This document shows, in pieces, positions 1,516 to 40,183 of a DNA stretch of 41,821 nucleotides (its first letter is position 1; every line of letters starts with the position of its first letter). The notes below the pieces were generated by a model. The model saw only the letters and a list, made by a program, of their open reading frames with translations, was not told where the DNA came from and did no database searches. A program made the translations under genes and the position numbers. This DNA comes from a virus, in IMG/VR virus record IMGVR_UViG_3300046812_000278, positions 1 to 41,821 of that record. One strand, written 5' to 3'.

Positions 1516-1561
1516 GAATCGACGGGGCGATCGTTTGCGCGGAGTGTGGAAGGGAAAAGGG

Positions 1562-4204: not shown

Positions 4205-4672
4205 ATGAACGGCGTGCCGACACCGGCCGACGTGGAGATTGTGTTTCGGACGCACTACCTGCGAACGGGAAACATCCGAGCATCGGCGAGACAGGCGAAG
4301 ATACCGGAACGGACAGGGCAAGATCTCGCGACACGGGCTCAAGCTGACCCGGAATTCACGCAAGCCCGCGCAGCTATGTATGCCCGCGCGCTTCCCGACG
4401 CCGAACGCATGCTCGTGAGCGCGCTCGAGATCGCGTACGACCGACTCGAGGCGGGACCCGAGTCGGTGCTCTCGGATCTGCCGGGTGGCGCGTCGAAGGT
4501 CACCATTCAGGACCCGGGACCGCAGTACCTCCGAGGCATCGCGGACGGCACGAAAGTCCTGACGCTCGTGCGCAAGGCTGCCGAGCCGACCGCGACCGAC
4601 ACAGGCCCTTCCGTGATCGTGAATCTCACGGTCGAATCGCCGCCTCCGAAGCCTGACATCGATGGCGCTTGA
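4205..4672 (+). CDS. terS: terminase small subunit
   Basis: A 155-residue protein directly upstream of the large terminase, with an AGGAG 8 bases before the ATG. The N-terminal region (residues about 8-45: VEIVFRTHYLRTGNIRASAR, then QAKIPERTGQDLATR) has the helix-turn-helix layout of TerS DNA-recognition domains: a gap-free helix, a turn, and a recognition helix. The central part is helical and would form the oligomer core; the tail is Pro-rich. TerS recognises the packaging site and regulates the TerL motor. It overlaps terL by 11 bases. The call rests mainly on HTH plus position. Confidence 0.75.
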   Translation: MNGVPTPADVEIVFRTHYLRTGNIRASARQAKIPERTGQDLATRAQADPEFTQARAAMYARALPDAERMLVSALEIAYDRLEAGPESVLSDLPGGASKVTIQDPGPQYLRGIADGTKVLTLVRKAAEPTATDTGPSVIVNLTVESPPPKPDIDGA

Positions 4673-13688: not shown

Positions 13689-14156
13689 ATGCCCGCCCCG
13701 GGCCATTCGCTCTATCGGCGCGCACTGCTGCACCATGCCGGCGCGTCCACGTCGGGGATCTCCGAGACCGTCTACCAGCAACTCGCCGAAGACTTTCCGA
13801 AGCGCTGGATCCAGTGGGTCCGTTCCGCGAAGTGGCGCGGGCCGATCGAAGTGCCGCTTGAGTCCGTGGACTTCACGAATCGGAAGACGTGGACCGCCGA
13901 GCCTGACGACAAGAAGGTCAAGCGATTCATGCAAGACATCCGGGACGGCGTCGTCAAACCCGCCATCCTGGTGAACGAGCCCAACAACGAGAAGATGGTG
14001 ATCGCCGACGGGCACCACCGTTCACTTGCCGCGCAAGAACTCGGCGTACCTGTTCGCGCGTATGTGGCAACCGTCGGAATGGTGCACGGAGACTGGGACT
14101 TCATGCACAGCCACCAGCTCAAGCGCGACGCGGACGGTGCCAAGGCGGACCGGTGA
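13689..14156 (+). CDS. ParB/sulfiredoxin-fold protein
   Basis: A 155-residue protein with a ParB-like nucleotide-binding domain: IEVPLESVDF at about 57-66, then KVKRFMQDIRDGVVKPAILV, then DGHHRSLAAQELGVPVRAYVA. The DGHHR loop corresponds to the GxxR nucleotide-phosphate motif of ParB/Srx proteins. In phage head regions this domain occurs alone or fused to minor head proteins; its role there is not established. No HTH of a plasmid-type ParB is present, so partitioning is unlikely. It is coupled to the next gene by a GTGA overlap. Confidence 0.7.
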   Translation: MPAPGHSLYRRALLHHAGASTSGISETVYQQLAEDFPKRWIQWVRSAKWRGPIEVPLESVDFTNRKTWTAEPDDKKVKRFMQDIRDGVVKPAILVNEPNNEKMVIADGHHRSLAAQELGVPVRAYVATVGMVHGDWDFMHSHQLKRDADGAKADR

Positions 14157-16929: not shown

Positions 16930-17337
16930 ATGCTCCTGCGTTTTTACGCATGTGGAAACACGCTCGTGTCCGTTCCGGGGCCGCGCTTCGTCGGCCAGGT
17001 GCCGCGTTACGTCGGCCGAAAGTTTCAGCCGGCGGCAGACGGAAAGCCCACGTCGCATCCGGCGACCGAGAAGCCGTACGAAGTCGACTCGGCAAGCAAT
17101 GAGGGGCGCCGCCTCTCGCTCGTCTGCCGCCGTGACGGTTCGCTGTATGCGGCGGATGTCGAGACCGCGAAGGCATGCGGCGTCGATCTCCTGGACGTCA
17201 GTTTCGCTGATGGCACGTGGAGCGCAAAAGCCAAGGCGGCCGCGGAGCCCGCGAAGGCACCAGCGAAGCCGCAGAAGCCCGCAGTGCCAGCGAAGCCCGC
17301 GGCCGAGCCCGTGAAGGAGCCCAAGACCAATGGCTGA
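16930..17337 (+). CDS. hypothetical protein with Pro/Ala/Lys tail
   Basis: A 135-residue protein. ATG 16930 follows CGGAGAACTC. The first 95 residues form a mixed domain (LRFYACGNTLVSVPGPRFVGQ; LSLVCRRDGSLYAADV), the last 40 are a low-complexity AK/AP-rich tail (KAPAKPQKPAVPAKPAAEP). In many Mu-like phages a small protein with such a tail precedes the sheath gene. It overlaps the sheath start by 8 bases. Role unknown. Confidence 0.6.
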   Translation: MLLRFYACGNTLVSVPGPRFVGQVPRYVGRKFQPAADGKPTSHPATEKPYEVDSASNEGRRLSLVCRRDGSLYAADVETAKACGVDLLDVSFADGTWSAKAKAAAEPAKAPAKPQKPAVPAKPAAEPVKEPKTNG

Positions 17338-18919
17338 TATCCCGATCGTTGGCGTCCCGTCTTCGTGGCGGTACCCCGGCGGCTACGCACAGATCCTTTT
17401 CGGACAAGGCCCGAGCACCGCTGCCGGCGGCCGGCGTCAGATCGTGTTCCCGATGCCGATGCGAGATGGCGTTGGCACGTGGACGCCGAACACGCTCTAC
17501 CGCATCCGGTCCGCATCGGAAGCGGAGCTCGGTGGCGGCGCCGGGGCACCCATCCACCGCGCGCTCGACGCTGCGATTACGTCGAACAAGAACGCGGACT
17601 ACTACGCGCTGCCGTACGTCTTCGCGAGCGACGGCGCCAGCGCGACGCTCGTTCTCACGTTCTCAGGAACGGCGACGGGCACCGGCACCGCGACCGTCAC
17701 GGTTTGCGGCGAGAAGCGCTCCTACGTGTTCCGAAGCGGAGACACTGAGAGCGACGTCGCGACTGGGCTCCAGAACGCGATCAATGGCAAAACGATTTTG
17801 CCAGTCACCGGAAACGCAACCGTCGGCGCGTTGACGATCGAATCGAAGATCGCGGGCGCTTCACAGGGCGACGGCACGACTGGTCAGTATCAGGTGCGCT
17901 GCGAGATCAGCGACACGAGCCTCGGGATCTCCGTGGATGTGACGTCCGGAGAGCTCGGCGACGATACGGCCGGTTCGGACGGTTCCGATGCCGAAGCGGA
18001 TGCGCTAGACGCGGCGCTTGCGACGCTTGCGGCTACCCGCCGGTACTATATCGGGGTCGCCGCATTCGACTCGGACAGTCTCGACAACCTCAAGGCGCGG
18101 ATCTCGACCGAAGCGGAGCCGATTCCCGGCTTCCGTGAGCGAGGCTTTGCGTGCTTCCCGGGCTCCCTCGGGGACGGGCAGACGCTCGCGGTCGGCGAGA
18201 ATTACGAACGGCTACAGCTCGCATGGGCGCCGAACGACGACTCCGACGTTGCCCAAATAGTCGGCAACCTCTGCGCCGTCTTCCAGGCGGACGAGCAAAT
18301 CACCTCCGCGGCAAGCTTCGATCTGTACCGCGTCTCGCCATTCGGCGCGGCAACGTGGAATGTCAAAGGTTGCCACGACCCCGCGAGCCGCCCGACGCAG
18401 CAGGACTGCAACGACGCGATCAATGACGGGCTGATGCCGCTCGGCACCGACGATGCCGGCTCATTCATCGTCATGGCGGTCACGACCCGGAGCAAGGACG
18501 CGAGCGGGAGTCAAGACGACTTCCGCGCCGCCGAGCCGCACCGTGTCAGCATCTCCGACGAGTGGACGGATCGCATCCTCGCGCGCGATTCCGCGACGTG
18601 GCGGAATGCGCTGCTCCAGGAAGACAAGCTCCTGGATCCGAACAAGCCCCGTACGGACGACAACATCGACACGAACCAGCGGCTCCCCGTCATCGCTGGC
18701 CGCAAGGTCGTGACTCCGTTCAACTGGAAGAAATGGTACTTCGGCGAATTGGATCAGTTCGCGGACGGTCACTTCCAGGCGCTCGACTCGATGAAGATGG
18801 CGACGCGCGTGCAGCGTGATCCGAGCAACACGGGCCGCATCGAAGTGAGCAGCGACCTGCGAACGGTCGACATCTGTCATCAGACGACGATCCTGCTCGC
18901 CGAGGTTTCGCCCGGCTGA
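17330..18919 (+). CDS. tail sheath protein (Mu gpL-like)
   Basis: A 529-residue protein that defines the contractile tail. Seen: N-terminal domain with GGRRQIVFPMPM, an inserted beta domain around residues 105-210 with Thr/Gly-rich strands (LVLTFSGTATGTGTATVTV), and the sheath C-terminus with TNQRLPVIAGRKVVTPFNWKKW... and terminal strand DICHQTTILLAEVSP. The sheath surrounds the tube encoded next and contracts to drive it through the envelope. A GC-rich hairpin follows the gene. Confidence 0.85.
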   Translation: MADIPIVGVPSSWRYPGGYAQILFGQGPSTAAGGRRQIVFPMPMRDGVGTWTPNTLYRIRSASEAELGGGAGAPIHRALDAAITSNKNADYYALPYVFASDGASATLVLTFSGTATGTGTATVTVCGEKRSYVFRSGDTESDVATGLQNAINGKTILPVTGNATVGALTIESKIAGASQGDGTTGQYQVRCEISDTSLGISVDVTSGELGDDTAGSDGSDAEADALDAALATLAATRRYYIGVAAFDSDSLDNLKARISTEAEPIPGFRERGFACFPGSLGDGQTLAVGENYERLQLAWAPNDDSDVAQIVGNLCAVFQADEQITSAASFDLYRVSPFGAATWNVKGCHDPASRPTQQDCNDAINDGLMPLGTDDAGSFIVMAVTTRSKDASGSQDDFRAAEPHRVSISDEWTDRILARDSATWRNALLQEDKLLDPNKPRTDDNIDTNQRLPVIAGRKVVTPFNWKKWYFGELDQFADGHFQALDSMKMATRVQRDPSNTGRIEVSSDLRTVDICHQTTILLAEVSPG

Positions 18920-20343: not shown

Positions 20344-22347
20344 ATGTCCGTCCTCCTCAGCTACGAATTTGCCACCGGGTCACTGAGCGCGATCAAGCGT
20401 TCATTCAAGACCATCGAGGGCATGGCGGAGCAGTCCGCCCGTAACGAGGAGAAGATCAAGTCTCGCGTAGCCGCTCGCGCTCGTCCCGCCGCGGCTCGCG
20501 CCAGCCTCGACCCGCAAAAGAAGGCGTGGGACGACATGGCGAAATACGGGGAGACCCGTATGCGCCAGACGGTGACGTTCCGCGAGCGGATGGAAAAGCG
20601 CGGGCATTCTGACCGCATGCGGATGATCGCAACCGAGCAGCGCGCTCGGGATGCAGCGGAGCGCGCCCGGGATCGCGTACGGCGCGCCACCGTCGGCCGA
20701 GTCGCGGACTCTGCAATTCGCAGCACCGTCGGCGTCGGGAAAGCCATCCTTGGCGCCACCGGGATCGCCGGCGGAGCAATCGCCGCTAGTCGCATCGGGC
20801 CCGCAATCGACCTACAGCACCAGCAACGAGAGTTGCTCAGAGCTGGGCGCGCCGCTGGCACCGACTACGGCATGAGCGAGGCCGAGTTGTCTGGCCGCGT
20901 GAAGGGCGCTGCGCTGGCGACCGGAACATCGCAAACGGATGTCACGGCCGGCGCGCACGCATTCGTAGAGAAGACCGGAGACCTAAAGGGAGCCGTCGAC
21001 AACCTGCAGACGTTCGCCACCGTTGCGGCGGCCACTGGTGCAAGTGTCGAGGACATCGGATCCGCTGCCGCGGACCTGTCGCAGAAGTTCGACATCAAGA
21101 CCACGGAGGGGATGTCGGAAGCGCTGGCGATGCTCGCTTTCCAGGGCAAGAAGGGCGCGTTCGAGATCAAGAACATGGCGGCGGAGTTCCCGCTGCTCGC
21201 GTCCGCTGCCGCGAACGCCGGCCTGCGTGGAGAGGGCGGCGTCAAGAATCTTGGCGGGCTCATTCAGATCGCAACGGTCGGCGCCGGCAAAGAGCAGGCG
21301 ACCACTGCGCTCGTGGATGCGTTCACCGAGCTATCGAAGCACGCGAAGGAACTCGAGGGTGGTTCGCTCGGAAAGCGGATCAACGTTTTCGAGAAGGGCA
21401 AAGGCATCGGCCACGGTGAGGTGCAGCGCAACTTCGGCGACGTAATCCAGGAGCTCGTGAGCGCCGCGCATGGCGACATGACGAAGATCGAACCGATCTT
21501 CGGACTCCGCGGCATCAAGGCCATCAACCCGCTGGTCGGCGCATATCAGAAGGCAGACATCGCGGCGGGCGGCGGCCGAGCCGGCGACATGGCGGGCCGT
21601 GCAGCGCTCGTCAAGATGATTCAGGAAAACGTCGAGGCCGGCGGCACGTTCAAGGAAGTCCAGATCGACGCCGCGCACGCGCTGCAGGATACGAGCGCGC
21701 AGCTAGAAAACCTGAACACGAACCTGACGGACGCGGTTCGGTCGAAGCTGCTTCCGGCCCTGATCGAGCTGGTGCCAAAGCTGCAGCCGCTGATCCCGCT
21801 CTTCGGCGATGTTCTCGACAAGCTCGCCGCACTCATCGGGTGGGCATCCGAGAATCCGTGGGCTCATATCCCGGAGCTGATCTCCGGATACGTTCTCGCG
21901 GACTTGGCGGCTACGGGGATCGGAAGCGCGGTCAAAAACATGATCGTGGGGCTGATTGCCGAGGGCGGCGCAGCGAAGGCCGTGGGTGGCATTGCCGGAG
22001 CCGTCACCGGTGCCGCCGGGACCGCCGCGGGCGGCCTCGGACTCGGGGCCGCTGGGGCCGGAGCGCTCGCCGTGGGAGGCGCCGCGGCGCTCGCTGCCGG
22101 TGGACTCGGCGCTGCCGCTTACCAGGCTTACGGGCTCTACAAGGACGTCAGCCAGACCGGCTGGGGCGGTGATGCCGGCAAGGCGAGCACCCCAGAGCAG
22201 TACGACGCGATGATCGCCGAGATGCGGAAGAACTCGGCCGCACTCGCCGAGAACACGGCGGCCACACGCGCGTCGGGGTCCGGTGTGTCCACCGGTCCCG
22301 TGACCAGCCCGAACCGTGGACCCGACCCGACAGGGGCGCGACTCTGA
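20344..22347 (+). CDS. tail tape measure protein
   Basis: A 667-residue protein. Seen: long charged helical N-terminus (RERMEKRGHSDRMRMIATEQ; RARDAAERARDRVRRATVGR), hydrophobic Gly/Ala segments around 130-150 and 540-600 that could enter the host membrane, a central TP901-type region with TQTDVTAGAHAFVEKTGDL and EMAAEFPLL-like repeats, and a flexible C-terminus. It sets tail length and is ejected ahead of the DNA. No lysozyme or peptidase domain is evident. Its stop overlaps the next start (TGATG). Confidence 0.85.
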   Translation: MSVLLSYEFATGSLSAIKRSFKTIEGMAEQSARNEEKIKSRVAARARPAAARASLDPQKKAWDDMAKYGETRMRQTVTFRERMEKRGHSDRMRMIATEQRARDAAERARDRVRRATVGRVADSAIRSTVGVGKAILGATGIAGGAIAASRIGPAIDLQHQQRELLRAGRAAGTDYGMSEAELSGRVKGAALATGTSQTDVTAGAHAFVEKTGDLKGAVDNLQTFATVAAATGASVEDIGSAAADLSQKFDIKTTEGMSEALAMLAFQGKKGAFEIKNMAAEFPLLASAAANAGLRGEGGVKNLGGLIQIATVGAGKEQATTALVDAFTELSKHAKELEGGSLGKRINVFEKGKGIGHGEVQRNFGDVIQELVSAAHGDMTKIEPIFGLRGIKAINPLVGAYQKADIAAGGGRAGDMAGRAALVKMIQENVEAGGTFKEVQIDAAHALQDTSAQLENLNTNLTDAVRSKLLPALIELVPKLQPLIPLFGDVLDKLAALIGWASENPWAHIPELISGYVLADLAATGIGSAVKNMIVGLIAEGGAAKAVGGIAGAVTGAAGTAAGGLGLGAAGAGALAVGGAAALAAGGLGAAAYQAYGLYKDVSQTGWGGDAGKASTPEQYDAMIAEMRKNSAALAENTAATRASGSGVSTGPVTSPNRGPDPTGARL

Positions 22348-25690: not shown

Positions 25691-26127
25691 CGACGCCGTT
25701 CGACTTCGGTCCGTTCGGCATCGGGACGCCCATCGACGCACCCGCCCCGCCAATGGTCAAAGCGTCGATGTCGCGCTACATCGACCCGGTTAGCAAAGAC
25801 TTCGGCGTCGATCCGTTCACTGGAAACCTGCGATCCATGCCCGGGGTGCGGCAGCGGTTCTTGCTGCTCGCCGCGACGCTCCTCGGCTCCTCGTCGGTAT
25901 TACCGGACCTCGGGATCGTGTTCCCGACAATCATCGACGACTCATTCGCCAGGCGCGTCGATGTCGCGATCCGGAGCGCAGCCAGCCACATGACCGACGT
26001 CGAGAAGGTGGCGCGCATCAACAAGGTCTCCGTCACCACCGGCTCACTCGGCCGCGTGCTTGTCCTGATCGCATACGACGATCTGACGCTGGGCGTTTCC
26101 GATTCCATCTCGGTGCCGATCCAATGA
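25687..26127 (+). CDS. baseplate wedge protein, gp25/GPW-like (Mu gp46)
   Basis: A 146-residue protein from GTG 25687 in a GTGA overlap. Seen: ISP-type segment (MSRYIDPVSKDFGVDPFTGNL), then RQRFLLLAATLLGSSSVLPDLGI with the conserved baseplate turn, then a C-terminal beta strand (SVTTGSLGRVLVLIAYDDL). Matches the gp25-like wedge protein that starts sheath polymerisation. ATGA overlap with the J-like gene. Confidence 0.75.
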   Translation: MTTPFDFGPFGIGTPIDAPAPPMVKASMSRYIDPVSKDFGVDPFTGNLRSMPGVRQRFLLLAATLLGSSSVLPDLGIVFPTIIDDSFARRVDVAIRSAASHMTDVEKVARINKVSVTTGSLGRVLVLIAYDDLTLGVSDSISVPIQ

Positions 26128-27626
26128 ACCCCGACGCTACCGAAGTCTTCGTCCCAAAGAACGCCGAGGAGCTGCGCGACACGTGGCTTCGCGACGTGCG
26201 GCTGGAGGCGCTGTCCGCTGGTCTCACGGACCCGCCGATCGGTCCCGGCTCGGACCTCTACATCCGCGCGACGGCCAATGCGAACGCGGACCTGATTCAG
26301 TACGCGAACATCGCAATCGCCGACCAGGACGCCGACGTGCTCTCCGCAACCGGAGACGCGCTCGACGACAAGCGTAAGGCTTACGGGCTTCCCGAGGTTG
26401 CGCCGTCCCCGAGCACCGGGAATCTGACCGTCGGCGTGGACGGCGGTGGAACCGTCACGCTCACGACCATCACGCGGTTCGTTTTCCCGAACGGACTCCG
26501 TGGCAAGGTAGCCGTCAATACGGCCGGCATCGCGAATGGTGGCCAGGTCCCGGTGGTCGCCATCGACACGGGCACCGGAACGAATCTGCCGGCGGGCGCG
26601 AAGGTACGCTGGGTTTCGCCGCCGCTCAACGTCCGCACCGGGGCAACCGTCGCTAGTGGCGGGCTCGTCGGTGGCGTGGACGAGGAGAACGACGAACGGA
26701 AGCGGGAACGGATCCTCAACTCGCTCGGCCATCTCCGCGCTGGCGGCAACTGGTCCCAAAAGATTCAGGTCGCGCTCGATGCGGTCGCGAACCTCCAATA
26801 CGCCTTCGTCTATCCGGCACTCGGCGGCCCCGGTTCCGAAAAGGTCGCGGTCATGCGCGAGCTCGACCCGGCGAACAATGACTACTCCCGCGAGGTCTCC
26901 GCTGGCGACGTGGCGCTCGTCAAGGGCGCCATGGATGACGAGTTCGCGCAGCCGTTTGAGCTGATCGTGCAGAGCGTCGCGGACGAACCGGTCGACGTTG
27001 CGCTCCTGCTGGCGCTCCCGGACTTTGCAACGAACGGATGGGTGAATCGTCCGGTGTGGCCGCCGCTGGAAGGTGGGGACACTCGCGTCAGGATTACGGC
27101 GTATGCGGGCGCTCTCTCTGTGACGGTGAACGCCACGACGACGACTCCGCCGACCCCGAATGTTTCCAAGATCATGTGGTGGTCCCCGAACGACCAGACG
27201 TTTTACACGAAGACGATCACGAGCGTCGGCGGCGGGACTGGCGCATGGGTACTCGGAATCGATTCCGAACTAGTCGACTCGCTCAGCAACGACGCGGCAG
27301 CGGGTGAATTCATCTCGCCGGCAGCTGTGAACGCGGCGGCCTACGGCGCAACCTGGCGCACAGTGCTGAACGTTCTTGGCCCAGGCGAAAACACGTCGGA
27401 TACGGCGCGAGTTGACAGGCGCCGCTCGCGCAGGCCGACGACCGCCGAGAAGTTCCCGAGCGCGCTCACGAGCCGTCAGACGGACGCGCTCGAGTCGGCG
27501 CATGCGGAGATCGCGGACGTGCAGTACTCGTACCGCAGCCAGAACGCCCCGACGATTCCGGGCACTCTCGCCGCTGCCCCCAATGTCCTCACGCCGCGAC
27601 AGTTCGGCATCTACGAGAGCACCTGA
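26124..27626 (+). CDS. baseplate J-like protein (Mu gp47)
   Basis: A 500-residue protein. Baseplate_J features: N-terminal helices (ELRDTWLRDVRLEALSAG) with GSDLYIRATANANADLIQY, the Gly/Thr-rich beta domain (NLTVGVDGGGTVTLTTITRFV), GLVGGVDEENDERKRERIL, the family's hallmark, followed by a helical pair (GGNWSQKIQVALDAV). The wedge forms the baseplate ring holding the fibres. Longer than Mu gp47 because of a C-terminal region (about 340-500) with extra beta content. Confidence 0.85.
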   Translation: MNPDATEVFVPKNAEELRDTWLRDVRLEALSAGLTDPPIGPGSDLYIRATANANADLIQYANIAIADQDADVLSATGDALDDKRKAYGLPEVAPSPSTGNLTVGVDGGGTVTLTTITRFVFPNGLRGKVAVNTAGIANGGQVPVVAIDTGTGTNLPAGAKVRWVSPPLNVRTGATVASGGLVGGVDEENDERKRERILNSLGHLRAGGNWSQKIQVALDAVANLQYAFVYPALGGPGSEKVAVMRELDPANNDYSREVSAGDVALVKGAMDDEFAQPFELIVQSVADEPVDVALLLALPDFATNGWVNRPVWPPLEGGDTRVRITAYAGALSVTVNATTTTPPTPNVSKIMWWSPNDQTFYTKTITSVGGGTGAWVLGIDSELVDSLSNDAAAGEFISPAAVNAAAYGATWRTVLNVLGPGENTSDTARVDRRRSRRPTTAEKFPSALTSRQTDALESAHAEIADVQYSYRSQNAPTIPGTLAAAPNVLTPRQFGIYEST

Positions 27627-30577: not shown

Positions 30578-33103
30578 ATGGCATCAGCCGCATTCGAGCT
30601 CGACCCGGGCACGGCCACCTTTGGTACTTCTCCGCAAGAGGTGAGCGCATCCGGGGCCACCGTCCGCTGTCGTCTCCTGAGCGTTGCCGGCATCACACCC
30701 GGATCGATTCGTTGGAGCTGCATCGGCACCAACAACGAAAGCGTCGCGATTCCAACGGCTACACCGTCCGGATCTCCGAGCGGCCAGATCGCAACCTTCA
30801 CGATCCCGTCCGGCTCGAATCAGGCCTATATCATCCAGTGCGAAGTCAATGGTGGACCCGACGTCAACGGACAGGCATCCACGCGCTCGAGTGGCAAGTT
30901 CTACGTTCTGAACGTCGCAAGCCGCGAGCCGATCGCATACTTCGAGACGACTGAGAGCTCTACCAGTCACGGCACGTTCGAGCTTATCGACGCGATTAAC
31001 AATACTGCCGGCGGTGGCGGGACCGGCGGAGTTGCCGGCATCGGCACCATTGCGGTCCCCGGCGTGCTCCGCGGCGTCGTCGGCGACGCGACAAAATACG
31101 CCTATCACGTCGGCGGCTTCTGGACGCTCGCTGACTCTGGAGGTGGTTCGTTTTACTGGGACGGCGCGAGCACCGCGACGGACGATGGCGGGACGATCAT
31201 TCGGCCAACCGCCATCGCCGCGCCAGACCCCGGCCGCTGGAAGCGGATCTACAATGGCGAGCTACAGGCCGAGTGGTTCGGCGCGCGTGGCGACGGCTCG
31301 CGTACGCTAGGAGACACGAGCGGCACCGATGACGCCGACGCGATCCAAGCATGCATCGAGGCCGCCAAGGCGAACGGTCAGAGCGTCGGATTCGATCCGC
31401 GCCGGGTATACAAGGTCTCGCAGCGTACCGGCGCGCTGAAGACCGATCCGGTTCTGCTGTGCGATGAAGCGCAGGGCCTACAGCTGGACGGTACCGGGGG
31501 TATCAAGTTCGCTCTCGGCGCGCGGATCAAGATAGTAGGTAAGAAGTCCCAGGCGCTGGTCAGTGCCAAGTCCTCGCTCGGCTTTCGGGCGAACGGCATT
31601 CATTTCGACGCGACGTCCGTCACCGGCATGACCACATTGGGCGATGGCCTGACGTGGGTTTATGCGAACTCGGCCGCGCGGATCGCAGACGCGCCGCATC
31701 TCACTGGTGACCGCGGCAAGGTCGCATTCGATACGGATACGGGCTTGCGGTTCGTGCTCCGCGCCGTCGGCACACCGGATACCTGGGACCCGGAGTCGAT
31801 CGACATCCTCGACACCACGCACACGCATATGTGGGGTATCGGCGGGACGGAAGGCGGCGACTCGGCGAACGTCGACATCGAGCATTGTGCTTTCTCCGGG
31901 AACGCCGGTACGCACGTCATTAGCCGCGGCGTGCGCTTCGCGAACACGCTCGATTCCGCAGTACGGACATCGCAGTTCACGAACCTTAAGGTCGGCGTCG
32001 GCGGTTCCGATAGCGACTTCGGCGCCGGCTACGCCAATGTGATTCGGGTTCGTGATTGCACGTTTAACCGTTGCGATAGCCACGGGATCGAGAATCCGCG
32101 CCAGTCCTGGACGGTCGAATCTTGCACGTTCGAGACGAAAACCGACGGCTCGATTGTCGACATCGCGACGACTCTGGCCGGCTGCGAAGGGCTCACCGTC
32201 CGAGGGTGTTGGTTCGGAGACGCGACGGCAGGCGGCACTTGCATCGATCTGTCTGCCGGACTCCTCGGCGGCAGCTTCACCGGCAACCTGGTCGAAGTTA
32301 CCGGGACGGGAACCTACTGCAAGCTCGCAGGCGTGACCGGTCTACACTCGCACGGGAACACGCTGGCAATTACGACCGGGTACAACGTCACCTCGACATC
32401 GGACGGGTGTGAACTCGGACACGATCGATTCAGCGGCACGACGTTCGCGACCGGTAAGACGAACCTGCGCAACGGGAAGATCCTGGAGAACAGCGGCACG
32501 GGCGTCGGTGGCATGTCGCTGGGCGGCTCGAACACGCTGAGCGGAGGTCCCGGATTATCGGTCGGCACAGGGAACACGAACAGCGGCAACAACACCGCGA
32601 CGATCGGCGTCAACAACGTCGCGGCAGCGCTCGACTCTGTGTGCGTAGGAGCCGCGGGCGTGTCTGCTACCACGTGTCAATTCGTGGTGGGCGGAGGGCA
32701 GGTTCTCGGTTCTGGCGGGTCGCAATGGTCCACCGTCATCCTGACGAAGGTTGTAACGAACGGCGCGAATCAAGAGCTGCCGAACGCCTCGGTCGCGACA
32801 CCTGGGATCGTCGGGACGAACCGACATAGCTATTCGATGATCGCCACGTACATGGCGTCCGACCAGGGCACGGGACCGACGAAGTCTTTTATGGCTATCC
32901 TCCTCGTCACTGCGCGGCGCAATAGCACCGGCACAATGACGATCTCCGGGCAGACCATGAACGGACTCGTAGACGCGGACGGCACCGGCTGCACGGTGGA
33001 CGCGATCGCGACTGGCGGCGGCGTCTCTTTCCGGTTCAACAACACGAGCGGCGTCACGATGAACGTCGTGTGCAGCGTTTCAATCACCGAGTGCGCTACC
33101 TGA
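30578..33103 (+). CDS. tailspike, pectate-lyase superfamily beta helix
   Basis: An 841-residue protein. Order: Ig-like N-terminal domain (1-115), a Gly-rich linker, a head-binding-like segment with DSGGGSFYWDGASTATDDGG (a common tailspike motif), AEWFGARGDGS...DDADAIQACIEAAKA (the pectate-lyase_3 opening), a long parallel beta helix (ANVDIEHCAFSGN; IRVRDCTFNRCDSHGIENP; GLTVRGCWFGDA), a repeat-rich part like YadA heads near 640-715, and a C-terminal beta domain. Such spikes bind and often cleave capsule or O-antigen. The active residues cannot be assigned from sequence alone. Confidence 0.8.
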   Translation: MASAAFELDPGTATFGTSPQEVSASGATVRCRLLSVAGITPGSIRWSCIGTNNESVAIPTATPSGSPSGQIATFTIPSGSNQAYIIQCEVNGGPDVNGQASTRSSGKFYVLNVASREPIAYFETTESSTSHGTFELIDAINNTAGGGGTGGVAGIGTIAVPGVLRGVVGDATKYAYHVGGFWTLADSGGGSFYWDGASTATDDGGTIIRPTAIAAPDPGRWKRIYNGELQAEWFGARGDGSRTLGDTSGTDDADAIQACIEAAKANGQSVGFDPRRVYKVSQRTGALKTDPVLLCDEAQGLQLDGTGGIKFALGARIKIVGKKSQALVSAKSSLGFRANGIHFDATSVTGMTTLGDGLTWVYANSAARIADAPHLTGDRGKVAFDTDTGLRFVLRAVGTPDTWDPESIDILDTTHTHMWGIGGTEGGDSANVDIEHCAFSGNAGTHVISRGVRFANTLDSAVRTSQFTNLKVGVGGSDSDFGAGYANVIRVRDCTFNRCDSHGIENPRQSWTVESCTFETKTDGSIVDIATTLAGCEGLTVRGCWFGDATAGGTCIDLSAGLLGGSFTGNLVEVTGTGTYCKLAGVTGLHSHGNTLAITTGYNVTSTSDGCELGHDRFSGTTFATGKTNLRNGKILENSGTGVGGMSLGGSNTLSGGPGLSVGTGNTNSGNNTATIGVNNVAAALDSVCVGAAGVSATTCQFVVGGGQVLGSGGSQWSTVILTKVVTNGANQELPNASVATPGIVGTNRHSYSMIATYMASDQGTGPTKSFMAILLVTARRNSTGTMTISGQTMNGLVDADGTGCTVDAIATGGGVSFRFNNTSGVTMNVVCSVSITECAT

Positions 33104-33113
33104 GGATCTAACC

Positions 33114-34496
33114 ATGCCAGTTTCTACAATCATGACTACGACCGAGAAGGCGAGTTACGACGCCTCAGTGTTGCAGCTTGTCGGGATCTCCGCCGGCAGC
33201 GGCGCGGTCAAGGCGTACGTGGATGCCACTGCGGCGGGGCTCAGCGCCAAGCCATCTGTGGTCGTATCGGCGATCACGAATCTGACGCTTTCCGGTGAGC
33301 AGACGGTCGATGGCGTGCTGACGAGCGCCTCCCGGATCCTGCTGACCGGTCAAACGTCGGGGATCGAAAACGGGATCTACGTCACCGGAGCCGGCGCGTG
33401 GACGAGGGCGACCGACATGGCGGCGACATCGGGAGCCTCGGGCGCGTTCGTGCTTGTGGAGCGCGGTACGGCGCGCGCGGGATCTGCGTGGGTTTGTACG
33501 ACGGCGGCGGGATCAGACGTCGTGGGCGTGAATTCGTTAACGTTCGTGGAATTCGACATCGGCGCGATCACCTTCACCAAAGTGAACGCCGCGCTTGCGA
33601 CGGCGAACGCATCGATCGCAGTCAATAGCCAAAAAATCACATCCCTCGCAAACGGTTCGGCTGCCACGGACGGCGCCGCGTTCGGACAGATCCCCGTGGT
33701 CGCCACAGCTACGCCGTCCGATGTGACCTACCCGGCGGCAGTAGGCACCGGGACCAAGTGGGCGGCAGAGGACCACACGCATCAGATGGCGCGTAGCGCG
33801 GCCCGCATGGGGTTCCGTTGCGATTTCGCAGCGGCGAATACCGCAAACTTCGTCGCGGCGACTCTCTACGTCGGTACGATGGGAGAGCCAGGCTGGATCG
33901 GAACGAACGCGAATAGCGCCACCGGGCTCACGCTTAACGCGAACAGCGCGACCGAGATCGGGACGTTGCTACTGTCCACGGGTTCAAATACCGCAGGCGC
34001 GTGCACGGCGGTAACGTCTGCCGGCAACGGCGGCCAGACGGTCACGCCAACGAGCGCCAACCCGCTCTTCTTCGAGGTCAAGTTTGCGTGTGCAGACGCC
34101 GTGAGCGACGGCGTGAACACGTACAAGATTATCGTCGGACTGAGCGACACGCTGAACGCCGCCCCGGCGAACGGATTTTGGGCCGAGGTGGACGCGAACA
34201 GCGATACGCACATTCTCGTGAAGACGTGCAGCGGCGGCGCGGGCAACGTCGTCACGGCAGTGACGTCCTCGGTCGTCATGGGTACGGCGACCTATCACAC
34301 GTTCAAAGTGGTCAAGCCGGCGGGCTCGCTGACATGTAATATTTTCCTGGACGGCACTCTCGTCGGCGCTGGCGCGATGCCTACCAACCTCATGAGCCCC
34401 ACACTTGAGATCATCAAGTCAGCGGGCGGCACGGCACGGCGCCTCGCGGTCGATTGGTTCGACATGGAGCAAGTCTGGGCGACACCGCGCACGTGA
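33114..34496 (+). CDS. tail fibre protein with repeated-fibre motif domain
   Basis: A 460-residue protein. Residues about 45-150 match the frequent fibre module (ITNLTLSGEQTVDGVLTSAS; RILLTGQTSGIENGIYVTGAGAWTRATD; GAFVLVERGTARAGSAWVC). The next part is a trimer-type shaft, and the C-terminal 230 residues look like a lectin/concanavalin-like sandwich (FFEVKFACADAVSDGVNTYK; TFKVVKPAGSLTCNIFLDG) that could bind surface carbohydrate. It ends 2 bases from the end of a convergent minus-strand gene. Confidence 0.75.
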   Translation: MPVSTIMTTTEKASYDASVLQLVGISAGSGAVKAYVDATAAGLSAKPSVVVSAITNLTLSGEQTVDGVLTSASRILLTGQTSGIENGIYVTGAGAWTRATDMAATSGASGAFVLVERGTARAGSAWVCTTAAGSDVVGVNSLTFVEFDIGAITFTKVNAALATANASIAVNSQKITSLANGSAATDGAAFGQIPVVATATPSDVTYPAAVGTGTKWAAEDHTHQMARSAARMGFRCDFAAANTANFVAATLYVGTMGEPGWIGTNANSATGLTLNANSATEIGTLLLSTGSNTAGACTAVTSAGNGGQTVTPTSANPLFFEVKFACADAVSDGVNTYKIIVGLSDTLNAAPANGFWAEVDANSDTHILVKTCSGGAGNVVTAVTSSVVMGTATYHTFKVVKPAGSLTCNIFLDGTLVGAGAMPTNLMSPTLEIIKSAGGTARRLAVDWFDMEQVWATPRT

Positions 34497-34498
34497 GA

Positions 34499-34711
34499 TC
34501 AGTCCGGCACGGGACGGAGAGGTGTCTCGCTGGGGGCCACCTCGACGTTGCTTCGCGCGAGTCCGCGGCCCATTGCCGGCCAGTAGATTTCAAAAACGCC
34601 GTCATCCTCGAAACGCACCACTTCGATCACCGACTCGCATCCGCAGCAGCACCGGAGCTTCGCGCCGACACAGACTTCGACACCATTCCGGTCGACACCA
34701 ATTCTCGTCAC
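34499..34711 (-). CDS. small Cys-containing hypothetical protein
   Basis: A 70-residue protein starting at GTG 34711, with AGGAG 7 bases upstream that overlaps the stop of the gene before it. Seen: CVGAKLRCCCGCESVIEVVRF, with a CCCGC cluster likely to bind metal, and a conserved-looking FEIYWPAMGRGLARSNV. Last gene of the minus-strand cluster and convergent with the fibre gene. Unknown function. Confidence 0.6.
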   Translation of the reverse strand: MTRIGVDRNGVEVCVGAKLRCCCGCESVIEVVRFEDDGVFEIYWPAMGRGLARSNVEVAPSETPLRPVPD

Positions 34712-34720
34712 GGCTTTCTC

Positions 34721-34945
34721 CTACGACTTTGCGAGTTTCTTCTTGTGGGATGACTTGCGGAGATTGCGCAGGCGCTGGCGGAGCGCTGGGTTTGGCTCCG
34801 AGCCGATAGCGTGCGACACCGCTGCCGGGTGCTTGCCGACGGTTGCCGCAGCATGAGCCTGCGCGTCACGCTGGGCGAAGAGGCGCGCGAGCTCCTCGGG
34901 GCCGATGGCGCGGAGGCCGGGAAGGAGCTTGGGCGGGGCGGTCAT
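34721..34945 (-). CDS. small DNA-binding-like hypothetical protein
   Basis: A 74-residue protein from ATG 34945, which overlaps the previous stop (ATGA). Seen: LARLFAQRDAQAHAAATVG, then KHPAAVSHAIGSEPNPALRQRL and a Lys-rich tail (KSSHKKKLAKS). The middle reads like a Cro/C1-type HTH: an AAATVGKHPAAVSHAI turn. It may regulate the cluster. A longer start at 35089 would overlap the neighbour strongly and is not needed. Confidence 0.55.
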   Translation of the reverse strand: MTAPPKLLPGLRAIGPEELARLFAQRDAQAHAAATVGKHPAAVSHAIGSEPNPALRQRLRNLRKSSHKKKLAKS

Positions 34946-35160
34946 GCGTTTCCCCAGCGCAACGTGATGTCGTTTTCGATCAGCGCGTACGTCGCGGAAT
35001 GCGGCCCCTCGTGGCGCTTGCGAAGCTGGCACCTCGGAGTGTGAAGACCGACCCCAGGGACATTCACTGTCTGCCCAGGTGCGGCGCATGCGTCACCGCT
35101 GACGGCAGCCTCGTCACTGAGACGGAGGGACTCGCTGATCGCTAAGACGGAAGTCACCAT
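34942..35160 (-). CDS. small hypothetical protein
   Basis: A 72-residue protein. ATG 35160 has GGAGG 5 bases upstream, a better start than ATG 35178. Seen: SDEAAVSGDACAAPGQTVNV, then CQLRKRHEGPHSATYAL and LRWGN. The C-x2...CxLRxxHxGxHS stretch is typical of small actinobacterial/phage proteins that bind metal through Cys and His. It is coupled by overlaps on both sides. Confidence 0.55.
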   Translation of the reverse strand: MVTSVLAISESLRLSDEAAVSGDACAAPGQTVNVPGVGLHTPRCQLRKRHEGPHSATYALIENDITLRWGNA

Positions 35161-35423
35161 CCGAGCCTCCGCCACCATGGCGCCGCTTCGATCTGAAAGT
35201 CTCCGTGGTGGTCAGGTTCGCCTGGGATCGATAGTGTCGGCTGTCGATGCTCGGGACAGAACACCGCGTTCGGGTATCGCTGGCCTTGCCATCCCGATTC
35301 GGCGAGCGTCACCGCATCCCATCGTGAACCGAAGGGCTGCACGTTCGTACGACAGAATCCGATTGTTCGACGTGAACAGCCGGGCTCGTCGCACTCCACG
35401 AAGACTTGGAATCGCATCGCCAT
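35154..35423 (-). CDS. small Cys/His-rich hypothetical protein
   Basis: An 89-residue protein starting at ATG 35423, whose A is shared with the TAA of the PHM-like gene (TAATG). Seen: VECDEPGCSRRTIGFC, a middle WDAVTLAESGWQGQRYPN and VFCPEHRQ, a pattern of Cys/His consistent with one zinc site. It ends with Trp-rich APWWRRLGW. An ORF extended upstream to 35852 is ignored because it would lie inside the PHM-like gene. Unknown function. Confidence 0.6.
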   Translation of the reverse strand: MAMRFQVFVECDEPGCSRRTIGFCRTNVQPFGSRWDAVTLAESGWQGQRYPNAVFCPEHRQPTLSIPGEPDHHGDFQIEAAPWWRRLGW

Positions 35424-36427
35424 TATTGCACCCTCGCCGTCCACGTCTCCGGCCCGACGACGAACCCGACGACGTTGCACATCTCGCCCGTCATGACGGC
35501 GTTCGACCAGCGGAGCACTGCATTCGTGGTGTTGTCGACGTCGCACTCCCAGGAGAGCACGCCTTGACTCGGGACGTGTAGAGGCGCCGTCTTGCTGGTG
35601 AACCACGAAACGGAGGGCTCCGACCACGACGACGTCGAATACTTCTGCGCGCCGTCCACCGCCACTCGCTCCTCGGTCGTGTGCGCATGGAAGTGTCCGG
35701 TGATTTGCAGGATGTCGATCGCGTGTCCGGCGACGACCGACGCCCGGATCGTTTGCTTCGTATGAGCCGGGACGGTCATGCCGGCACCACCGGCCATCTG
35801 CAGCGGAGAGATCGGCCTCACCGTGCTCGCAACCGTGTGCAGGTTCACCCACGCTTCGACGAGCTGCGGGCGGTCGGTCATGTTGATCGCGTGAGCGGCG
35901 ATCACGAAGGACCCCGCGGGAACTTTCAGCGCGGCTCCGGCGAGCTCCGGCGCACCCTGATCGAAAGCGACGCTCTCGGTCGGGACCTGTGTCAGGAAGA
36001 TTGCCGGGTTGATGAGCGCCGCCGTCGCGTTGGGTTTTCCGGTCGCGCCGTTGTAGAACGCAAGGTGATGCATGCCGGTGCGCTCGCTCACATCATAGCT
36101 CTCGATGAGCATCGCCGCGTGCAACGGTGAAACGATCTCGTAGGAGAGCGTCTCATCGCCGGGCGCGATCAGGAATTGCCCCAGCTCGGCGGGGTCATCG
36201 TAGTTCGCCGGACCGTATCGGAGCTGGACGACGTTCGGATCCGTAGAGGCAGCGAGGCAGGCCTCGTCCCCCGCGTAGGCCGTGCGGAGTCCGCAGGCAT
36301 TGCCAGCCGCGACCGGTGCGGCGCCTCCCGCATCCTCCGAAAGCGGTGAGCCGGTCGGAAGCGCTCCGGGAGGCGAGGAGCAGGCGGCAAGGAACGCAGC
36401 GGCGAGCGCGAACGTTCGAGCGGTCAT
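35423..36427 (-). CDS. PHM-like copper type II monooxygenase lipoprotein
   Basis: A 334-residue protein with a lipoprotein signal (lipobox LAAC, Cys16) and a region resembling peptidylglycine alpha-hydroxylating / dopamine beta-monooxygenases. All copper-ligand positions appear: His120-His121 (MHHLAFY), His179 (AAHAINM), the HxH of GHFHAHTTEE (His245/247/249) and Met316 (GEMCNVVG). This matches the H/H/H and H/H/M sites of PHM in order. Such enzymes hydroxylate C-H bonds using copper and ascorbate; the substrate here is unknown. Coupled by ATGA to a small lipoprotein upstream and TAATG downstream. Alternatively it is a non-catalytic envelope protein with this fold. Confidence 0.7.
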   Translation of the reverse strand: MTARTFALAAAFLAACSSPPGALPTGSPLSEDAGGAAPVAAGNACGLRTAYAGDEACLAASTDPNVVQLRYGPANYDDPAELGQFLIAPGDETLSYEIVSPLHAAMLIESYDVSERTGMHHLAFYNGATGKPNATAALINPAIFLTQVPTESVAFDQGAPELAGAALKVPAGSFVIAAHAINMTDRPQLVEAWVNLHTVASTVRPISPLQMAGGAGMTVPAHTKQTIRASVVAGHAIDILQITGHFHAHTTEERVAVDGAQKYSTSSWSEPSVSWFTSKTAPLHVPSQGVLSWECDVDNTTNAVLRWSNAVMTGEMCNVVGFVVGPETWTARVQ

Positions 36428-36630
36428 GATTCGCACCGCGCCCCGTTGTTGCCAACCGTACAGCCCGGCAGACGTCCGACGCTCCGAAAACCTCCGGAGC
36501 CCCCGTCCGAAGCGCTCGCCTCAAGCGAGCCCCCGTCTTGGGCTGCCGGCGGCGTCGTACTGGTGACTGTTCCGCCGCACGCCGTCACGATGACGGCTAC
36601 AGCGATCGGCGCTATGGTGTTTATGTTCAT
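36424..36630 (-). CDS. small lipoprotein
   Basis: A 68-residue protein with a lipoprotein signal: MNINTIAPIAVAVIVTAC, lipobox VTAC, Cys18. The mature part is Gly/Ser/Pro rich with two Cys near the end (PGCTVGNNGARCES). It overlaps the PHM-like start (ATGA) and is likely made with it. No strong ribosome-binding site. Possible partner or helper of the PHM-like lipoprotein. Confidence 0.6.
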   Translation of the reverse strand: MNINTIAPIAVAVIVTACGGTVTSTTPPAAQDGGSLEASASDGGSGGFRSVGRLPGCTVGNNGARCES

Positions 36631-36768: not shown

Positions 36769-36939
36769 CTACTTCGACAGCTTGCCTTTCGCGACCGTGA
36801 CGCCGAGCTTCTCAGCGTAGGCCCGAAGCGCGCGACGGATGACGTCCGCCCGAGTCCGTTCCTCGGCCACGACGAGGCGCTCGAGGAGGGTGAGCTCTGG
36901 TTCCGGCAGGCGAACGGCCACGATTGAGCTGGGAGCCAT
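36769..36939 (-). CDS. ribbon-helix-helix regulator (CopG/Arc-like)
   Basis: A 56-residue protein. The pattern SIVAVRLPEPELTLLERLVVAEERTRADVIRRALRAYAEKLG (in segments) is the RHH layout: a beta strand, helix 1, turn, helix 2. Such proteins dimerise and insert the strand pair in the major groove. ATG 36939 chosen because the RHH strand follows directly. GGAG lies immediately before it, which is unusually close. It likely controls its own promoter and perhaps the cluster downstream. The ORF extended to 37023 would precede the strand and is not preferred. Confidence 0.7.
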   Translation of the reverse strand: MAPSSIVAVRLPEPELTLLERLVVAEERTRADVIRRALRAYAEKLGVTVAKGKLSK

Positions 36940-37160: not shown

Positions 37161-37358
37161 ATGAGCCTCAACGAACACAAGATGACGCTAGCCCTCGCGG
37201 TCCTGACCATCGCTGCGGGCACATTTCTGCCCTACTTTCCGCACGTGTCGGCCGGCCTCGCCGCGTCGATCGTGGGCTTTCTCGGGACCGTGAATTCCCT
37301 CGTGCAGCGGTATTCGATGCCGCCGCTCGGGAAGGAAACGCCGAAGGTGGAGTCGTGA
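37161..37358 (+). CDS. holin-like small membrane protein
   Basis: A 65-residue protein with CAGGAG before the ATG. Two likely membrane helices: residues about 8-25 (MTLALAVLTIAAGTFLPYF) and 31-49 (AGLAASIVGFLGTVNSLVQ), followed by a short polar tail (PPLGKETPKVES). Size, two helices and being first in the lysis-type cluster fit a class II-type holin, which would permeabilise the inner membrane. Not proved. Confidence 0.6.
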   Translation: MSLNEHKMTLALAVLTIAAGTFLPYFPHVSAGLAASIVGFLGTVNSLVQRYSMPPLGKETPKVES

Positions 37359-37609
37359 GAGCGCTCATCCCGATCGCCTTCCTGGCCGGCGTCGTCATCG
37401 GCTGCGGCATGCCAGCGAAGACGGTCATCCAAGACGCCTGCACGGTCATCGATTCGGGCAATCCGGCAATCGGCGCGCTCTGCCTGACCGCGGAGGAAAT
37501 CGCGTCGCTGTTCGGCCACGTCCGGGCCGCGAGAGCGTTCCGTGCCTCGCATCCCGCGGCGAGTCCGGGTGGCAAGGTCGACGTGTGCGAGGGCGAGGTG
37601 GCGCCGTGA
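37355..37609 (+). CDS. small lipoprotein of the lysis region
   Basis: An 84-residue protein from GTG 37355 (GTGA overlap). Lipoprotein signal: MRALIPIAFLAGVVIGC, lipobox VIGC, Cys17. The mature part has three more Cys (DAC, LC, VC) and a helix TAEEIASLFGHVRAARAFRA. It could be an outer-membrane spanin-type subunit or an exclusion lipoprotein. It overlaps the peptidase gene by GTGA. Confidence 0.6.
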   Translation: MRALIPIAFLAGVVIGCGMPAKTVIQDACTVIDSGNPAIGALCLTAEEIASLFGHVRAARAFRASHPAASPGGKVDVCEGEVAP

Positions 37610-38361
37610 CGCTCCGACCCGTCAAAGGCTGGATCCCTCCGAAGCGCTGGCCAACTCGGGAAGAGTTTGCCGCGCACCACGCGCGCATGGCTCGCGCCGC
37701 CGCATCTGGTCCGCTCGGGCCGGTGACGCTCGGGACGCCGACGATCCTCGACCAGCTCGACACCTCGGCATGCTTCGGATTCGCAGCCGTCCAGGCCGCT
37801 CACATCGCGACCGGCAAGCCCATCGGGAGTCCGCTCGTCCCGTACTGGTGCGCCCGTCGTGAGGCGGCATCGGCGGATACCGACGTCACGGACGACGGCA
37901 TCGACCCGGATTCTATGGTCGCCGCTCTGAACGATTTCGGCGTCGCTCCGATGGCGGAAGATCCGTTCGACTCGGCGCGCATCAACGAACGGCCGAGCGA
38001 CACGGCCATGCTCGCCGCGCAGCAGGTGACGTGCGCGATCGAGCCGTTGCTTGCGACGGGTCCCGAGCTGTGGACTGCCATCCAGCACGCGATCTGCGTC
38101 GAGCGGCTCCCGGTCCTCGTCGCGCTGGAAGTCGTACCGGCCTTCGACAACGCGGGCTCGACCGGCGGCATCATCGACGACCCGAGCGGCACGAGCCGAG
38201 GCGGACACGCGCAGTGTCTCTACGGCACCACGGACCGCGGCGCGCAGCTCGCCAACTCGTGGGGCGTCGGGGAGTGGACGGCGGACGGCACCGCCGTCCT
38301 GACACCTCGTTTCATCGCTGGCGCTGTCATGTGGGCGGGAGCCCTGAAGGTGAACCCATGA
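37606..38361 (+). CDS. papain-like cysteine peptidase (C1 family-like)
   Basis: A 251-residue protein from GTG 37606. Full papain-type active site: Gln50 (oxyanion, in LDQLDTSACFGFA) exactly 6 residues before Cys56, His201 (GGHAQCLYG) and Asn217 in NSWG. The spacing and NSWG/GGHA context are those of C1 peptidases. No signal peptide, so it would act in the cytoplasm or reach its target after holin opening. It sits in the lysis-type cluster, so it may cut envelope proteins, spanins or structural precursors; an anti-host role is also possible. Confidence 0.8.
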   Translation: MTLRPVKGWIPPKRWPTREEFAAHHARMARAAASGPLGPVTLGTPTILDQLDTSACFGFAAVQAAHIATGKPIGSPLVPYWCARREAASADTDVTDDGIDPDSMVAALNDFGVAPMAEDPFDSARINERPSDTAMLAAQQVTCAIEPLLATGPELWTAIQHAICVERLPVLVALEVVPAFDNAGSTGGIIDDPSGTSRGGHAQCLYGTTDRGAQLANSWGVGEWTADGTAVLTPRFIAGAVMWAGALKVNP

Positions 38362-39141: not shown

Positions 39142-39434
39142 GCCTCTCACGCGAGCGCCGCCTCATCGAGCAGACCCTCGTCCAGGCGCGGCAGATCGTC
39201 GACGACGTGACGGCCGCGCTGAAAGCGAATGACTCGCCCGCGCTCCGAGGCCTCCGGGGCGCCGCGGCGTCGTTCGCGGTGCAGGCGTCCTCGGCGCTCG
39301 ACCGGCACACAGAGGACGATGGCGAGCTGACTCCGGTAGCCGTCCCGACATCGAAGTCATCGTCGAACTTCCAAGCCGTCGGGCGGATCCTCGACGACGC
39401 GAACAAGGGCCGACCGCTCAAGGACGAACCATGA
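39138..39434 (+). CDS. helical hypothetical protein
   Basis: A 98-residue protein from GTG 39138 (GTGA overlap), no signal. A long helix (RRLIEQTLVQARQIVDDVTA; SPALRGLRGAAASFAVQASS) suggests a coiled-coil dimer. The tail is hydrophilic (FQAVGRILDDANKGRPLKDE). It overlaps the lysozyme start by ATGA. Function unknown. Confidence 0.55.
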   Translation: MSLSRERRLIEQTLVQARQIVDDVTAALKANDSPALRGLRGAAASFAVQASSALDRHTEDDGELTPVAVPTSKSSSNFQAVGRILDDANKGRPLKDEP

Positions 39435-40183
39435 ACCTCCTCGGCTACGGTTGTGACGTCTCATCGTTCCAGGCTCCGAGCGTGATCGACGCGCTCGCGG
39501 GGCAGGTCGATTTCGTGATCTGCCGCGCGGCATATGGGACGAGCATCGATAAGCGGGCGCTCGAGCACGCGGAACGCGTCCGGGCCATCGGCGCAAAGCT
39601 CGGGCTCTATCAGTTCTTCCGGAACATCCAGGACGTCGGCGCGCAGTTCGACGCGTTCCGGACCGTCGCGGACGCGATCGGCTACGGCGCCGGCGACATC
39701 GTGCCCGCGGTCGACATCGAGCTCGACCCGTTCCCGACGAAGCGAGCGGTAGATCCGAGCTGGGCGGGCCCCGCGGAAGAGCTCGTCGCGAAGCTCGTCG
39801 AGACGTTCGGGGACGCGATGATTTACATTACGCGCCGAGAGTTCTCCTTCATGGGCTCGCCGACATGGGTCCTAGTTCGCCCGCTCTGGGTGTCGCACTA
39901 CACCGGAGCGGCGACGCCCGCGACGCCCGGCGGTCTCACGCCGACCGTGTGGCAACATTACGTCGGTCCGTTTCAGCGCTTCCACCCTGGCGGCTACTGC
40001 GAGCCGAACCCGTCGCTCGACCAGGACCGGCTCGTGCAGCCGCTACCGCTCATCGCAGCGAAGGCGCCGGAGCTCACCGACGAGGACCGATCACGGATCG
40101 CGAGCCTCGTATCCCTCACCGCCGAGCAGGCCGCCGACGACGCGTTCCGGAGCGCGCGTCGCGCCGGGGAGCTAGCAGCGTGA
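39431..40183 (+). CDS. endolysin, glycoside hydrolase family 25 lysozyme
   Basis: A 250-residue protein with the GH25 fold: GCDVSSFQ with Asp9, then VDFVICRAAYG, AVDIELDP with catalytic Asp95 and Glu97, PLWVSHYTG, and VWQHYVGPF ... LDQDRLV near the end. GH25 enzymes cleave the beta-1,4 bond between N-acetylmuramic acid and N-acetylglucosamine. There is no signal peptide, so it probably needs the holin to reach the wall. A short helical tail (SLTAEQAADDAFRSARRAG) follows the domain. Overlaps by GTGA with the next gene. Confidence 0.9.
   Translation: MNLLGYGCDVSSFQAPSVIDALAGQVDFVICRAAYGTSIDKRALEHAERVRAIGAKLGLYQFFRNIQDVGAQFDAFRTVADAIGYGAGDIVPAVDIELDPFPTKRAVDPSWAGPAEELVAKLVETFGDAMIYITRREFSFMGSPTWVLVRPLWVSHYTGAATPATPGGLTPTVWQHYVGPFQRFHPGGYCEPNPSLDQDRLVQPLPLIAAKAPELTDEDRSRIASLVSLTAEQAADDAFRSARRAGELAA

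What the first reader, a model, noticed from the sequence alone, without database searches (positions are those of the whole stretch)
35423..36427. Phage-encoded PHM-like copper monooxygenase lipoprotein
A lipoprotein inside a phage structural region carries, in order, His-His (120-121), His (179), HxH (245-249) and the Met of GEMCN (316), the two-copper ligand set of peptidylglycine/dopamine monooxygenases. I know of no phage system built on this enzyme class. A surface lipoprotein that oxidises a peptide or sterol-like substrate, or that changes the envelope to block other phages, would be new.
Basis: partly seen in the sequence, partly recalled or inferred. Interest (0 to 1): 0.8.

Follow-up and report, generated by a model that had tools for sequence, protein, structure and literature searches.

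The report
Phage lipoprotein resembling copper monooxygenases
Two otherwise unrelated tailed phages carry, beside the gene for their host-recognising fibre tip, a gene for a membrane-anchored protein that keeps the whole copper-binding pattern of the animal enzymes PHM and DBH, which may point to a phage enzyme acting on the bacterial surface, although neither the fold nor any activity has been shown.

Summary
The gene is real: minus strand, 35423-36427, 334 aa, lipobox LAAC. It carries the PHM/DBH copper-ligand pattern in order (HH120/121, H179, H245xH247, M316). Its Cys pair C295/C317 has the exact 22-residue spacing that PHM and DBH share. Ligands alone recur in 0.03% of shuffles; ligands plus Cys in 0 of 400,000. 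Pfam finds nothing in this protein. Its only relative (58% identity, phage contig G001) gives one sub-threshold Cu2_monoox_C hit in the right place (E 0.0053 for the C-terminal half). Fold prediction failed (pLDDT 32), so the jelly rolls stay unproven. G001 belongs to another myovirus lineage. The two contigs share essentially one module: fibre tip (72% identity), this lipoprotein, and a 65-aa small membrane-type ORF (84%). In G001 the three are packed on one strand. In the window the lipoprotein is inverted, in a tight opposite-strand operon behind an RHH-type repressor-like gene and a small second lipoprotein. Neither tip nor lipoprotein was found in any other searched collection. Best reading: a PHM-like envelope lipoprotein linked to the receptor-binding tip, probably modifying or shielding the surface as T5 Llp does, possibly by copper chemistry. 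Inferred, not shown.

The parts
35423..36427 (-). PHM-like lipoprotein, 334 aa: lipobox C16; candidate CuH-type ligands H120, H121, H179; candidate CuM-type ligands H245, H247, M316; Cys pair C295/C317
33714..34496 (+). C-terminal tip domain of the last tail-fibre gene (33114-34496), shared with G001 at 72% aa identity
37161..37358 (+). 65-aa small hydrophobic (holin-like) ORF, 84% identical in G001, where it follows the lipoprotein gene after 12 nt
36424..36630 (-). second, small lipoprotein (68 aa, lipobox VTAC), start-stop coupled (ATGA) to the PHM-like gene
36769..36939 (-). ribbon-helix-helix (CopG/Arc type) DNA-binding protein, first gene of the minus-strand operon
35154..35423 (-). 89-aa Cys-rich ORF that overlaps the stop codon of the PHM-like gene (TAATG)
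34942..35160 (-). 72-aa ORF with a C-x5-H-x3-H motif, overlapping its neighbour
34721..34945 (-). 74-aa ORF, ATGA overlap with its neighbour
34499..34711 (-). 70-aa ORF with a CCCGC motif, last gene of the minus-strand run
37355..37609 (+). small lipoprotein after the 65-aa ORF (lipobox VIGC), possibly an Rz1-type lysis lipoprotein

Best explanation
The gene encodes an exported lipoprotein whose mature part is a divergent PHM/DBH-like domain pair with two type-2 copper sites (inferred from ligand and cysteine pattern). It belongs to a mobile host-recognition module: fibre tip plus lipoprotein plus small membrane ORF, shared by two unrelated myoviruses (shown). It is made in the infected cell, or lysogen, and anchored in the envelope. 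There it most likely modifies or masks the surface feature that the adjacent fibre tip recognises, protecting the cell from superinfection and released virions from sticking to debris, as T5 Llp does for its neighbour pb5. The copper site would supply oxidative chemistry on that target, or may be a metal-stabilised binding fold. Shown: lipobox, ligand pattern, conservation, module sharing, gene coupling. Inferred: fold, copper binding, location, target and exclusion function.
For: Ligand order and spacings match PHM: 58/66/69 residues against 64/70/70, and C-to-MC spacing 22 in window, PHM and DBH. Shuffle test. The block ending in EMC aligns ungapped to PHM even with EMC left out (p = 0.0007 for G001, 0.002 for the window; weaker against DBH, p = 0.06 and 0.10). 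Cu2_monoox_C is the only Pfam family hit for the G001 C-terminal half, E = 0.0053. hhalign puts the HxH, C and EMC elements in register, though weakly. Purifying selection. G001 is a different myovirus, and the only clear shared stretch is fibre tip, lipoprotein and 65-aa ORF. In G001 the lipoprotein start overlaps the fibre stop by 22 nt. Precedent: Llp is a phage lipoprotein adjacent to the receptor-binding protein gene and blocks the receptor (PMC9586334, PMC4728585).
Against: The window protein itself matches no Pfam family with any significance, and no NCBIfam, PHROG or PADLOC family. The N-terminal Cu2_monooxygen domain is not detected. AlphaFold models are uninformative. A two-sequence PHM+DBH profile does not separate the proteins from shuffles. 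Known exclusion lipoproteins of this type (Llp, Cor) are small and non-enzymatic. Linkage rests on two contigs only, and neighbours can be exchanged together without working together. In the window the gene has left the late operon, so a shared expression time is not conserved.
Confidence: 0.4

Rival explanations
1. A captured host copper-monooxygenase-like lipoprotein serving as a moron: it changes the lysogen's metabolism or secreted chemistry (oxidising a peptide or small molecule) and has nothing to do with phage adsorption; its place beside the fibre is only where extra genes accumulate.
For: Inverted, tightly coupled operon with an RHH repressor-like gene in the window, a typical moron layout. 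Composition (GC 0.66, GC3 0.81) is like the phage's other genes. PHM-like lipoproteins are, from memory only, known in some soil and aquatic bacteria such as myxobacteria.
Against: In G001 the gene is wedged between fibre and 65-aa ORF with overlapping start, as a late gene would be. The same fibre tip accompanies it in both phages. No bacterial close relative was found, though those scans see only close relatives.
Confidence: 0.27
2. A lysis-associated envelope lipoprotein: it sits with the 65-aa holin-like ORF and helps outer-membrane disruption or release.
For: Directly before the 65-aa ORF and another small lipoprotein-like ORF in G001, and beside the lysis-type region in the window.
Against: In the window it is on the opposite strand with its own regulator-like gene. 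Conserved copper ligands have no known part in spanin or holin function.
Confidence: 0.1
3. Not PHM-related at all: an unrelated beta-rich exported protein that binds some other metal (for example zinc) through its HxHxH cluster; EMC and Cys spacing are coincidental.
For: Scores stay below curated cut-offs; a third His (H249) makes a zinc-like HxHxH cluster; models predict beta strands but no confident fold.
Against: The full ligand-plus-Cys pattern in 0 of 400,000 shuffles, PHM similarity outside EMC above shuffles, and a hit to the single pre-named Pfam family.
Confidence: 0.17
4. A virion component (tail-tip or fibre-associated lipoprotein) rather than a cell-envelope protein.
For: Neighbour of the fibre gene in both phages; start-stop overlap with the fibre gene in G001.
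Against: Lipoprotein signal in both copies; opposite-strand operon with a regulator-like gene in the window.
Confidence: 0.06

Closest known systems
Peptidylglycine alpha-hydroxylating monooxygenase (PHM; PDB 1opm/1sdw) and dopamine beta-hydroxylase (DBH; PDB 4zel), Pfam PF01082 + PF03712
   Same: Order and near-equal spacing of all six copper ligands; Cys pair flanking the Met ligand with identical 22-residue spacing; GDxLxxxC motif (in G001); EMC(N) motif
   Different: Bacterial lipoprotein signal, few cysteines (no other PHM disulfides recognisable), below Pfam cut-off, N-terminal domain not detected, phage-borne; fold not verified
T5 Llp / BF23 Llp receptor-blocking lipoproteins
   Same: Phage lipoprotein encoded next to the host-recognition protein; fibre tip and lipoprotein occur together as a module
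   Different: Llp is small and non-enzymatic; this protein is 334 aa with a putative metal site; no receptor known; exclusion untested
Phage cta39025 (MW202476.1), nearest named relative of the window's structural genes
   Same: Sheath 42% identity over the full length, terminase 34%, similar gene order including a Mu-like gpP gene and baseplate J
   Different: No PHM-like lipoprotein or related fibre tip found in it by tblastn; other genes after the fibre region

Membership tests
PHM/DBH copper type II ascorbate-dependent monooxygenases | Six copper ligands HH...H...HxH...M in order with family-like spacing | tested here: met
   conserved in the relative
PHM/DBH copper type II ascorbate-dependent monooxygenases | Cys pair bracketing the Met ligand (PHM C293/C315, disulfide from memory), 22 apart | tested here: met
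   C295/C317, PHM chain 249/271, DBH segment 257/279
PHM/DBH copper type II ascorbate-dependent monooxygenases | Score over the curated cut-off of PF03712 (Cu2_monoox_C) | tested here: not met
   window protein no hit; G001 C-terminal half 16.7 bits against a cut-off of 23, E 0.0053
PHM/DBH copper type II ascorbate-dependent monooxygenases | Recognisable PF01082 (Cu2_monooxygen) N-terminal domain | tested here: not met
   no hit for N-terminal halves at a limit of E = 10 (HMMER's filters drop most matches above 0.1); control PHM/DBH hit both models
PHM/DBH copper type II ascorbate-dependent monooxygenases | Two jelly-roll domains with two copper sites | tested here: inconclusive
   AlphaFold on two sequences, pLDDT 32; Foldseek result meaningless
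PHM/DBH copper type II ascorbate-dependent monooxygenases | Copper- and reductant-dependent hydroxylation | not testable with these tools
   needs purified protein
Llp-type receptor-blocking phage lipoproteins | Lipoprotein signal | tested here: met
   LAAC in both copies
Llp-type receptor-blocking phage lipoproteins | Gene next to the receptor-binding/fibre-tip gene | tested here: met
   window and G001; only two contigs; that the tip binds a receptor is inferred
Llp-type receptor-blocking phage lipoproteins | Small lipoprotein (mature Llp about 60 aa) | tested here: not met
   334 and 329 aa precursors
Llp-type receptor-blocking phage lipoproteins | Blocks adsorption of the same phage | not testable with these tools
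   needs an experiment

The most novel reading that the evidence does not exclude
A phage superinfection-exclusion enzyme: a surface-anchored, PHM-type two-copper monooxygenase that oxidatively modifies the receptor recognised by the phage's own fibre tip, inherited with that tip as a recognition/anti-recognition module.
Probability: 0.14. Interest if true: 0.85.

Novelty: new variant of a known kind. Interest (0 to 1): 0.57.

Why it matters
PHM/DBH chemistry is best known from animal hormone and neurotransmitter synthesis. A phage copy with the full ligand pattern, maintained by selection and shared together with a receptor-binding fibre tip between unrelated phages, would be the first phage use of this class known to me, and would suggest enzymatic receptor modification as a way of superinfection exclusion. 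It also gives a simple test case for recognition/anti-recognition modules outside enterobacterial phages.

Tried and rejected
Structure prediction twice with the only two available sequences: pLDDT about 32, not used; Foldseek on that model gave no match at E <= 0.001 and is disregarded. Profile from PHM+DBH only: not separated from shuffles. Relatives in genome contigs: none confirmed in two scans; phages and plasmids: none with the phage protein or with rat PHM, where rat PHM would in any case be too distant to find divergent copies. No PHROG matches PHM. The genome search could not be centred on a bacterial genome. A fixed-spacing HxH/C/EMC DNA pattern over viral contigs found only G001; the other nine matches lie in no suitable reading frame. 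Site-specific inversion of the segment was considered, because the gene is inverted relative to G001, but only short imperfect inverted repeats, as expected in GC-rich DNA, were found around it. Defence-system membership: no PADLOC hit. 'Mu-like transposable phage': no transposase seen, TerL-type terminase present.

Full report
OBSERVATION. The plus strand of 35423-36427 is closed by stops; the minus strand is open for 334 codons plus stop. The product starts with a short signal and lipobox LAAC(16) and carries HH120/121, H179, H245-F-H247-A-H249 and G-E-M316-C-N. The record is a virus contig with an extensive contractile-tail gene set: terminase 4662-5939, portal 5943-7784, head protein 10895-11995, sheath 17330-18919, tape measure 20344-22347, baseplate 26124-27626, endolysin 39431-40183.

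CHANCE. PHM and DBH sequences were checked against PDB entries. Ligand spacings are HH-58-H-66-HxH-69-M here and HH-64-H-70-HxH-70-M in PHM; the cysteine just after the Met and the one 22 residues before it have identical spacing in the phage protein, PHM and DBH. With plus or minus 10 residues of freedom per loop, shuffled versions of the protein show the ligand pattern in 107 of 400,000 cases and the ligand-plus-cysteine pattern in none. The tolerances were chosen after seeing the protein, so the numbers are guides rather than exact probabilities.

HOMOLOGY. The window protein hits nothing of significance in Pfam and nothing in NCBIfam, PHROGs or PADLOC. Its relative on contig G001 hits only Cu2_monoox_C, in the right place: E = 0.034 for the protein, 0.0053 for its C-terminal half, still under the curated cut-off. 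The ungapped 42-residue block around EMC resembles PHM even when EMC is left out (p = 0.0007 and 0.002; DBH p = 0.06 and 0.10): G001 AAGDSLSWEC against PHM TFGDILAARC and DBH HPGDVLITSC. Profile-profile comparison of the two pairs gives the right register for HxH, C and EMC but only P = 0.05, and a PHM+DBH profile search does not separate the proteins from shuffles. The N-terminal domain is recognised only by its ligands. AlphaFold failed on two sequences. I judge PHM-like ancestry or fold at about 0.8, and do not file the protein as a formal family member because curated cut-offs were tested and not met.

SELECTION. The two proteins are identical at 189 of 328 aligned positions (58%), dN/dS about 0.25; all ligands and both Cys pairs are kept, the two longest invariant blocks are GHFHAHTTEERV and EMCNVVGFV, and identity around the ligand sites is 76% against 60% (p = 0.02).

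CONTEXT. G001 is another myovirus: Mu-type portal, S49 protease, a sheath of another PHROG family, helicases, tyrosine integrase. Between window and G001 the clear matches are the fibre C-terminal tip (72% aa), the lipoprotein, the 65-aa hydrophobic ORF (84%), and a weaker 153-aa neighbour (41%). In G001 the order is fibre, lipoprotein (start 22 nt inside the fibre gene), 65-aa ORF 12 nt further on, all on one strand. In the window the lipoprotein is inverted and lies in a tightly overlapping minus-strand run: RHH protein, then after a gap a small lipoprotein, the PHM-like protein and four small ORFs. The fibre tip, like the lipoprotein, was found in no other viral contig and not in the phage collection.

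MECHANISM. A lipoprotein tied to a receptor-binding tip and exchanged with it is the anatomy of the T5/BF23 Llp modules, where the lipoprotein blocks the receptor of the neighbouring receptor-binding protein (PMC9586334, PMC4728585). I therefore favour surface modification or shielding linked to the fibre's receptor, with the copper site either catalytic or structural. The opposite-strand operon with its RHH gene fits expression apart from the late genes in the window's phage, which also keeps the simpler moron reading alive. Host, substrate, copper content and exclusion are all untested. PHM and PNGase F form one Pfam clan, and the double jelly roll is shared with some virus capsid proteins (PMC8812541), so fold alone would not fix function.

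Noticed in passing
window 30578-33103: 841-aa fibre/spike-like ORF whose sequence suggests a pectate-lyase-type beta-helix tailspike; no family search was run on it.
   Followed up: no
window 37585-38361: 258-aa ORF beside the lysis genes reads like a papain-type cysteine peptidase (SACFGFA...GGHAQCLYG...NSWG), but no Pfam family matched.
   Followed up: partly
window 922-1515: 197-aa ORF resembling an Ntn-hydrolase/proteasome-like protein by eye; no convincing Pfam hit.
   Followed up: partly
window 13689-14156: ORF within the structural genes that reads like a ParB/sulfiredoxin-type domain (VIADGHHRSLAA).
   Followed up: no
window 1535-2161: HNH endonuclease (Pfam HNH) upstream of the terminase.
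   Followed up: partly
L002 7529-7822: In G001, a small exported Cys-rich protein follows the module; function unknown.
   Followed up: no
window 33114-33560: The N-terminal part of the last fibre protein belongs to a very common domain: 196 viral contigs matched; the best 80 align mainly over residues 25-187.
   Followed up: partly
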